Below are positions 41,345 to 43,465 of a DNA stretch of 43,894 nucleotides, piece after piece (within the stretch, counting starts at the first letter, position 1; every line of letters begins with the position of its first letter). Position numbers and translations under genes: made by a program. Under the pieces are notes generated by a model. That model was given only the letters and a program-made list of their open reading frames with translations, had not been told where the DNA came from and did no database searches. The stretch is from Lachnospiraceae bacterium (GTDB taxonomy: Bacteria > Bacillota > Clostridia > Lachnospirales > Lachnospiraceae). The stretch lies in NCBI GenBank assembly GCA_017543445.1, contig JAFYGB010000074.1, positions 1 through 43,894 of the forward strand. The letters are read 5' to 3'.

Positions 41345-43465
41345 TTGGCTGGTAGAGAATATCCGTTAGAGAGAACCAGAAACATCGGTATCATGGCGCA
41401 CATCGATGCAGGTAAGACTACATTGACCGAGCGTATTTTGTACTACACCGGTGTTAACTACAAGATTGGTGATACTCACGAGGGTACTGCGACCATGGAC
41501 TGGATGGAGCAGGAAGCCGAGAGAGGTATCACGATTACTTCCGCCGCAACGACATGCCATTGGACTTTGGAAAAAGAAGCTAAGAAGATGCCCGGTGCTC
41601 TTGAGCATCGTATCAACATTATCGATACCCCCGGACACGTTGACTTCACCGTAGAAGTTGAGCGTTCCCTGCGTGTACTCGATAGCGCTGTCGGCGTTTT
41701 CTGTGCAAAGGGTGGCGTTGAGCCGCAGTCTGAGAACGTATGGCGTCAGGCGGATAAGTACAACGTTCCGCGTATGGCATTCATCAACAAGATGGATATC
41801 CTGGGCGCTGACTTCTACAGTGCAGTAGAGCAGATCAAGACCCGTCTGGGTCACAATGCAGTTCCGATCCAGTTGCCCATCGGAAAGGAAGACTCCTTCA
41901 TGGGTGTTATCGACCTTTTCGAGATGCAGGCTTACCTGTATCACGGCGATAAGGGTGAAGACGTAGAGGTTACCGCTATTCCGGATGATATGAAGGATGA
42001 TGCGGAGCTGTACAGAACCAACATGATCGAAGCGATCTGTGAGACCGACGATGATCTCATGATGCAGTATCTTGAGGGTGAAGAGCCTTCTACCGAAGAT
42101 CTGAAGAAAGCACTTCGTGCTGCAACGATCAATGTTTCCATTATCCCGGTTTGCTGCGGTAGCGCATATCGTAACAAGGGCGTTCAGAAACTTCTGGATG
42201 CGATCCTTGAGTACATGCCCGCACCTACCGACATTCCTTCGATCGAAGGTGTGGATCTGGATGGAAATCAGGTCGTTCGTCATTCTTCCGATGAAGAGCC
42301 TTTCTCCGCTCTGGCATTTAAGATCATGGCGGATCCGTTCGTAGGTAAGCTTGCATACTTCCGTGTATATTCCGGAACATTGAATTCAGGTTCTTACGTA
42401 CTGAACGCAACAAAAGGAAAGAAGGAGCGTGTCGGACGTATCCTTCAGATGCATGCAAATAAGAGAACCGAACTCGATAAGGTTTACTCTGGTGATATCG
42501 CCGCAGCTGTAGGCTTTAAGCTTACCACAACCGGTGATACGATCTGCGACGAGCAGCACCCCGTAATCCTCGAGTCCATGGTATTCCCGGAGCCCGTTAT
42601 CGACATCGCCATCGAGCCGCTTACAAAGGCTGCTCAGGGTAAGATGGGCGAGGCACTCTAGAAACTTGCAGAAGAAGATCCGACCTTCCGTGTTCACACG
42701 GATCAGGAGACTGGTCAGACCATCATCTCCGGTATGGGTGAGCTTCACTTGGAGATCATTGTTGACCGTCTTAAGAGAGAGTATCACGTTGAGGCCAATG
42801 TCGGCGCTCCTCAGGTTGCTTATAAAGAGACCTTCACGAAGGAAGTCAACATTGACAGTAAGTACGCGAAGCAGTCCGGTGGCCGTGGACAGTACGGACA
42901 TTGTAAGGTCATCTTCACACCTATGGAACCCAATGGTGAGAAGACCTTCGAGTTCGAGTCTACGGTAGTCGGCGGTGCTATTCCGAAGGAATACATCCCC
43001 GCTGTCGGCGAGGGTATCGAAGAGGCTACCAAGTGCGGTATCCTGGGCGGTTATCCTGTACTCGGCGTACATGCGAACGTATACGATGGTTCTTACCATG
43101 AAGTCGACTCTTCCGAAATGGCATTCCACATTGCCGGTTCCATGGCATTTAAGGAAGCTATGCAGCAGGGTGGAGCGATCCTTCATGAGCCGATCATGCA
43201 GGTCGCGGTAAGCACCCCCGAAGATTACATGGGCGATGTTATCGGTGACATCAACTCCCGTCGTGGCCGTATCGAAGGTATGGACGACATCGGCGGTGGT
43301 AAGATGATCCGTGGTTATGTTCCGCTTGCAGAGATGTTCGGTTACTCCACCGACCTGCGTTCTAAGACCCAGGGTCGTGGTAACTATTCCATGTTCTTCG
43401 AAAAGTACGAGCCGGTACCGAAGAACGTTGCAGATAAGGTATTGTCCGCAAAAACCGGCAAATAA
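41345..43465 (+). CDS. fusA: Elongation factor G, reading frame interrupted by an in-frame TAG
   Basis: EF-G, the GTPase that drives ribosomal translocation. The full frame is 706 codons, the normal length, from TTG 41345 behind AGGAGG. The G domain has [39 protein letters not shown] and NKMD. Codon 439 (42659-42661) is TAG, in the segment [23 protein letters not shown] where other EF-Gs have Gln (CAG). The same frame then continues without any other defect through domains IV and V ([37 protein letters not shown]) to TAA. The stop truncates domain III, and a 438-aa product could not translocate. A single C-to-T change explains it. A sequencing or assembly error is the first suspect. Confidence 0.93.

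What the first reader, a model, noticed from the sequence alone, without database searches (positions are those of the whole stretch)
42656..42664. In-frame amber codon in the middle of fusA
The EF-G frame is intact for 706 codons except for TAG at 42659-42661, exactly where a conserved Gln (CAG) is expected. Both sides are full-quality EF-G sequence in the same frame, so this is one base change, not a decayed gene. EF-G is essential. Options are: a base-call or consensus error; a strain that carries another fusA; suppressor tRNA read-through; or, unlikely, use of TAG as Gln.
Basis: partly seen in the sequence, partly recalled or inferred. Interest (0 to 1): 0.85.

Follow-up and report, generated by a model that had tools for sequence, protein, structure and literature searches.

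The report
Lone stop codon inside EF-G gene
A gene that bacteria need carries a single stop codon in the assembled sequence of one uncultured bacterium; close relatives have an ordinary serine codon there, and the evidence points to a local sequence error or a dead gene copy rather than a new way of reading the genetic code.

Summary
The in-frame TAG at 42659-42661 is in the sequence: codon 439 of a 706-codon fusA. The expected Gln is wrong: all four same-genus genomes in which fusA was found have TCG (Ser); 24 other homologues have Ala 19, Ser 4, Gln 1. Of 150 family matches listed, only this one has an internal stop (330 of 397 genomes matched, the rest not listed). Nothing suggests recoding: RF1 is present, TAG ends 5 of 24 Pfam-supported window genes, relatives' proteins stop within two codons of the same place in the four comparable ones, 86 ABC-ATPase matches hold no stop, and none of 42 typed tRNAs has a CUA anticodon, though that set is incomplete. 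No second canonical fusA was found. Downstream, five residues unique to this genome lie within codons 570-621, four of them at conserved sites, while the rest of the 3' part looks normally constrained. This favours a locally wrong consensus 1.2 kb from a contig end (0.66), then a recent real nonsense allele (0.25). Only reads can decide.

The parts
41345..43465 (+). fusA (EF-G, EFG I type), interrupted at codon 439
   Evidence: Translation with one internal stop; TIGR00484 and Pfam matches on both pieces
42659..42661 (+). in-frame TAG at codon 439, within domain III
   Evidence: Pfam EFG_III covers residues 414-487 of the sister protein; TCG in four sisters
43052..43207 (+). codons 570-621: all five other residues unique to this genome (F570Y, K608Q, L614H, K619Q, E621A); four lie in codons 608-621 (43166-43207)
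   Evidence: conservation in 23-24 homologues
40248..40676 (+). rpsL, ribosomal protein S12; no residue unique to this genome
   Evidence: Pfam
40850..41320 (+). rpsG, ribosomal protein S7; no residue unique to this genome
   Evidence: Pfam
43598..43894 (+). start of tuf (EF-Tu), cut by the contig end; no residue unique to this genome in the part held; named from its translation and place in the str operon (recalled), no family search was run on it
   Evidence: contig C61 is 43894 bases

Best explanation
The TAG is not a decoded codon. The window is a whole contig of a Lachnospiraceae draft genome that looks metagenome-assembled, and its last 1.3 kb has a locally unreliable consensus: a wrong base at codon 439 and a patch of wrong bases around codons 570-621. 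The organism's real fusA is most likely uninterrupted, as in its relatives. Shown: the stop, its uniqueness among listed relatives, the serine codon in sisters, the second patch, ordinary use of TAG as a stop. Inferred: that the cause is technical (base calling or assembly of a gene conserved between co-occurring strains, next to the place where the contigs break).
For: Four of four sister fusA genes have TCG; 1 of 150 listed family matches has a stop. Five residues unique to G000 fall in codons 570-621, none in 1-438, 440-569 or 622-706. K608 is K in 24 of 24 homologues, L614 L in 23 and I in 1, K619 K in 21 and R in 3, E621 E or D in 21 of 23. Of the seven window genes whose sister identities are all 94% or more, only fusA has such a cluster. 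Outside the patch the 3' part carries only synonymous G000-only changes, so it does not look like a long-dead gene. The site is 1233 bases from the contig end; the four sister contigs break 295 to about 1030 bases past fusA. Four of seven G000-only nonsynonymous or nonsense base changes, the TAG included, are A<->C, against 0 of 17 synonymous ones; A<->C is the commonest HiSeq miscall class and miscalls can pile up in regions (PMC3334598, passages). At an assumed consensus error rate of 1e-5 about one false nonsense codon per genome of this size is expected. By codon 440-706 counts G000 has 4 nonsynonymous to 4 synonymous unique changes, sisters 0 to 20, Fisher p 0.003.
Against: No reads or coverage could be seen, and the sequencing platform and assembler are unknown. 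Random errors should seldom survive assembly, least of all four in 42 bases. The A<->C excess is not distinguishable from the sisters' own nonsynonymous changes (2 of 7, p 0.59). F570Y needs two base changes and Y is common there (12 of 24), so it looks like true divergence. The cluster statistics (p 0.0003) were chosen after seeing the data. No other interrupted conserved gene was established in the window (its raw list of stops is dominated by antisense ORFs).
Confidence: 0.66

Rival explanations
1. A real, recent nonsense allele: some cells of the population (or a lineage with another fusA outside the assembly, or a dying lineage) carry a broken fusA, and the assembler picked that version. 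The product would stop inside domain III, without domains IV and V, so it would not be a working EF-G.
For: The bases are what the assembly holds. Changes at otherwise conserved sites downstream fit an allele no longer under selection. The assembly is 93% complete, so a second copy could be missing. G000 resembles G002 more closely upstream of the stop (24 of 1317 differences, against 41 of 804 downstream) and G003 relatively more downstream (41 of 1317, 31 of 804), a mosaic pattern that strain mixing or recombination could give.
Against: Decay should be spread over the 3' part; outside codons 570-621 no G000-only residue is seen downstream. No second canonical fusA was found. EFG-II-type genes are reported always to accompany another EFG (PMC3150367, passages), so the paralogue is not expected to replace it.
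Confidence: 0.25
2. Read-through: a serine-inserting UAG-reading suppressor tRNA, such as an anticodon mutant of the serine tRNA that reads UCG, decodes the codon and makes full-length EF-G.
For: The sister codon is a serine codon one base away, which is the kind of site such a suppressor would serve. The tRNA set of the assembly is incomplete (no tRNA-Asp was seen), so a missing suppressor is not excluded.
Against: None of 42 typed tRNAs has CUA; the serine tRNA with CGA is present unchanged in its anticodon. RF1 is present. TAG ends ordinary genes. Three of the substitutions at codons 608-621 would still have to be tolerated in a working EF-G at sites invariant or nearly so. RNA after the stop shows no unusual fold (z -0.77).
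Confidence: 0.05
3. Two-piece EF-G: translation stops at TAG and restarts downstream (in-frame ATG at 42734), giving two proteins that work together.
For: An in-frame ATG at codon 464 opens a 243-residue frame.
Against: The break lies inside domain III and the restart drops more of it (EFG_III 414-487); no such split appears among the 150 listed relatives.
Confidence: 0.02
4. Genetic code change: this organism reads TAG as an amino acid.
For: Only this one codon.
Against: RF1 present; TAG is the stop of 5 of 24 genes, four of which end within two codons of where sister proteins end, in two cases where sisters use TAA or TGA; 86 ABC_tran matches without any internal stop.
Confidence: 0.005

Closest known systems
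Isolated premature stop in a draft or metagenome-assembled genome (sequence error)
   Same: One in-frame stop in an otherwise intact essential gene, seen in one assembly and in no listed relative, near a contig end
   Different: Accompanied by a tight patch of further changes 400-550 bases away; reads not available
Canonical EF-G, EFG I (NCBIfam TIGR00484; solved structures such as 1efg and 1dar)
   Same: Str-operon place, length, all domains present in one frame; sister protein scores 1113 bits
   Different: Stop in domain III and changes at conserved sites at the domain IV/V border
EFG II subfamily (PMC3150367, passages)
   Same: The genome's second EF-G-like protein (C71, 692 aa) has RLFSI at the G2 motif, fitting the Clostridia pattern RxxSI given in the paper, and scores best with NF009381
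   Different: It is a separate intact gene, not the window's fusA
Serine-inserting amber suppressors such as supD (recalled)
   Same: A serine codon one base from TAG would be their natural target
   Different: No CUA tRNA found among 42

Membership tests
Functional EF-G (EFG I) | Uninterrupted frame through domains I-V | tested here: not met
   TAG at codon 439, in domain III
Functional EF-G (EFG I) | Sequence match of both pieces to the EF-G model | tested here: met
   TIGR00484: 678 bits upstream piece (over the cut-off of 659.4 alone), 406 bits downstream piece
Natural amber suppression | tRNA with CUA anticodon | tested here: inconclusive
   None among 42 typed tRNAs, but the assembly lacks at least tRNA-Asp
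Natural amber suppression | Full-length protein made | not testable with these tools
   Needs proteomics
TAG reassigned to an amino acid | Many conserved genes with in-frame TAG | tested here: not met
   0 internal stops in 86 ABC_tran matches
TAG reassigned to an amino acid | TAG no longer used as a stop; RF1 lost or changed | tested here: not met
   TAG ends 5 of 24 genes; RF1 frame present with VPET at the PxT site (motif recalled), running to the end of the held stretch
Pseudogene with an intact second copy | Second canonical fusA in the genome | tested here: not met
   One full-length match; three EFG_IV matches: fusA, the EFG-II-type gene, a tetracycline-protection-like GTPase. Assembly 93% complete
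Pseudogene with an intact second copy | Relaxed selection along the 3' part | tested here: inconclusive
   4:4 against 0:20 nonsynonymous to synonymous unique changes, but all confined to codons 570-621
Sequence error | Reads disagree with the consensus | not testable with these tools
   No reads on hand

The most novel reading that the evidence does not exclude
An uncultured Lachnospiraceae species makes its only canonical EF-G by reading one UAG as serine through a suppressor tRNA that lies in the unassembled part of the genome, while UAG still ends its other genes, so that translocation itself depends on a leaky stop.
Probability: 0.04. Interest if true: 0.85.

Novelty: not a real feature. 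Interest (0 to 1): 0.12.

Why it matters
If it were real and decoded, an essential translation factor would depend on suppression of its own stop codon, which would be remarkable. As it stands, the value is a caution: one in-frame stop in an essential gene of a draft genome should be held against sister genomes, release factors, ordinary stop usage and the local density of odd substitutions before any recoding is proposed. The neighbouring patch of unique residues at conserved sites is the useful warning sign here.

Tried and rejected
TAG as Gln: rejected, because the relatives' residue is Ser or Ala. Recoding: rejected. The paralogue as replacement: considered, but sister genomes hold EFG-II-type genes beside an uninterrupted fusA and the literature passages say this type always accompanies another EFG. 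A stop-associated RNA structure: none stands out. A donor for the odd patch: a 49-residue search of 397 family genomes gave 99 matching genomes; after the window itself the best identity was 92% (the sisters), then 84% or less. Decay elsewhere in the window: the automatic comparison with sister ORFs listed 21 internal-stop places in the window, but the greedy ORF choice takes in antisense frames; only the fusA TAG was supported by four sister genes, and I did not resolve the other 20 one by one. Clusters of unique residues also appear in four more divergent window genes (14207, 28600, 35254, 37409), so a cluster alone is not special; it is special only in a gene this conserved. An earlier test compared 5:4 with 0:20 using two different counting rules; it is replaced (4:4 against 0:20; by residues, G000 has 5 and the sisters together 1 downstream). 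Of 30 candidate ORFs scanned with Pfam, six were left out of the stop-codon count: five with no family, and 13020-14207 with only weak zinc-ribbon matches; one of the six, 36211-37254, ends in TAG. The literature search on errors in metagenome assemblies with five of six terms found no paper; other searches gave listings only.

Full report
What is there. The window is the whole contig C61 (43894 bases) of a draft genome, G000, of 2.64 Mb in 83 contigs, 93% complete and 1.27% contaminated. Its right end holds rpsL, rpsG, fusA and the start of tuf. fusA spans 41345-43465. Its translation is continuous except for TAG at 42659-42661, codon 439 of 706. Both pieces match EF-G. Pfam places codon 439 inside domain III (residues 414-487 of the sister protein), so a product ending there would lack most of domain III and all of IV and V.

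What relatives show. The genus has six genomes in the collection. Four besides G000 have a fusA 95-97% identical in DNA; the fifth, G004, gave only a weak paralogue match. All four carry TCG, serine, at codon 439. In 24 more distant homologues the residue is Ala in 19, Ser in 4, Gln in 1. In a family-wide search 330 of 397 genomes matched; 150 matches were listed and only G000's has a stop inside.

Is TAG read here? No sign of it. Two release factors are present: one with VPET at the PxT site (RF1 by recalled motif; its frame runs to the end of the held stretch) and one with SPF (RF2). Of 24 Pfam-supported window genes 15 end in TAA, 5 in TAG and 4 in TGA. For four of the five TAG-ended genes sister homologues could be aligned, and they end within two codons of the same place, in two genes with TAA or TGA in some or all sisters; the fifth (53-3601) had no usable sister alignment. 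All 86 ABC_tran matches in the genome are free of internal stops. Rfam gave 42 tRNA matches and ARAGORN typed all 42; none has CUA, and serine tRNAs with GCT (twice), GGA, TGA and CGA are present. The set lacks at least tRNA-Asp, so a suppressor in the missing sequence is not excluded.

Is there another fusA? A DNA search found one full-length copy. A search for EF-G domain IV found three matches in G000: fusA, a 692-residue EFG-II-type protein on C71, and a protein of about 900 residues on C63 whose best model is the tetracycline ribosomal-protection family, far below its cut-off. The C71 protein has RLFSI where the literature gives RxxSI for Clostridia EFG II; the passages say this subfamily always accompanies another EFG. 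All five other genomes of the genus have a match of this kind. It is therefore an ordinary companion, not a substitute.

A second anomaly in the same gene. Counting residues that differ in one genome while the other four agree, G000 has none in codons 1-438, none in 440-569, five in 570-621 (F570Y, K608Q, L614H, K619Q, E621A) and none in 622-706; the sisters have 4 (G005), 0, 0 and 1 (G001). K608, L614, K619 and E621 are conserved in 23-24 homologues, and the aligned Thermus EF-G has K, L, R and E there. By codon counts downstream of the stop G000 has 4 nonsynonymous and 4 synonymous unique changes, the sisters 0 and 20 (p 0.003). Of the seven window genes whose sister identities are all 94% or more, only fusA has such a cluster. 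rpsL, rpsG and the part of tuf held have no residue unique to G000.

Reading. The stop and the patch lie 1233 and about 690-840 bases from the end of the contig, where sister contigs also break. Four of the seven nonsynonymous or nonsense base changes, the stop included, are A<->C, against none of 17 synonymous ones; A<->C exchange is the most frequent HiSeq miscall class and miscalls accumulate in regions (PMC3334598, passages). Against this, the sisters' nonsynonymous changes show A<->C in 2 of 7, not a significant difference, and the platform is unknown. Long-standing decay is unlikely, since outside codons 570-621 the 3' part shows only synonymous unique changes. With an assumed error rate of 1e-5 about one false nonsense codon per genome is expected, so one such case in a scan of many genomes is ordinary. 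I judge a local consensus error most likely (0.66), a recent real nonsense allele or strain variant next (0.25), suppression 0.05, a two-piece protein 0.02, recoding below 0.01. The reads would decide at once.

Noticed in passing
window 43052-43207: Five residues of EF-G unique to this genome in codons 570-621, four of them in 14 codons at conserved sites; either wrong bases or a non-functional allele.
   Followed up: partly
L070 1747-3825 (G000:C71): Intact 692-residue EFG-II-type EF-G paralogue; all five other genomes of the genus have a match of this kind.
   Followed up: partly
L135 241-2940 (G000:C63), minus strand: A protein of about 900 residues with an EF-G-like domain IV, best matched by the tetracycline ribosomal-protection model but far below its cut-off (428 against 775 bits); similar long frames in three other genomes of the genus and a contig-cut one in G002.
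   Followed up: no
window 41345-43465: Mosaic relationship: G000 fusA is closest to G002 upstream of the stop and to G003 downstream, suggesting recombination or strain mixing in the str operon.
   Followed up: partly
window 27176-28423: IS110-type transposase gene on the minus strand, next to a gene for a beta-CASP metallo-hydrolase.
   Followed up: no
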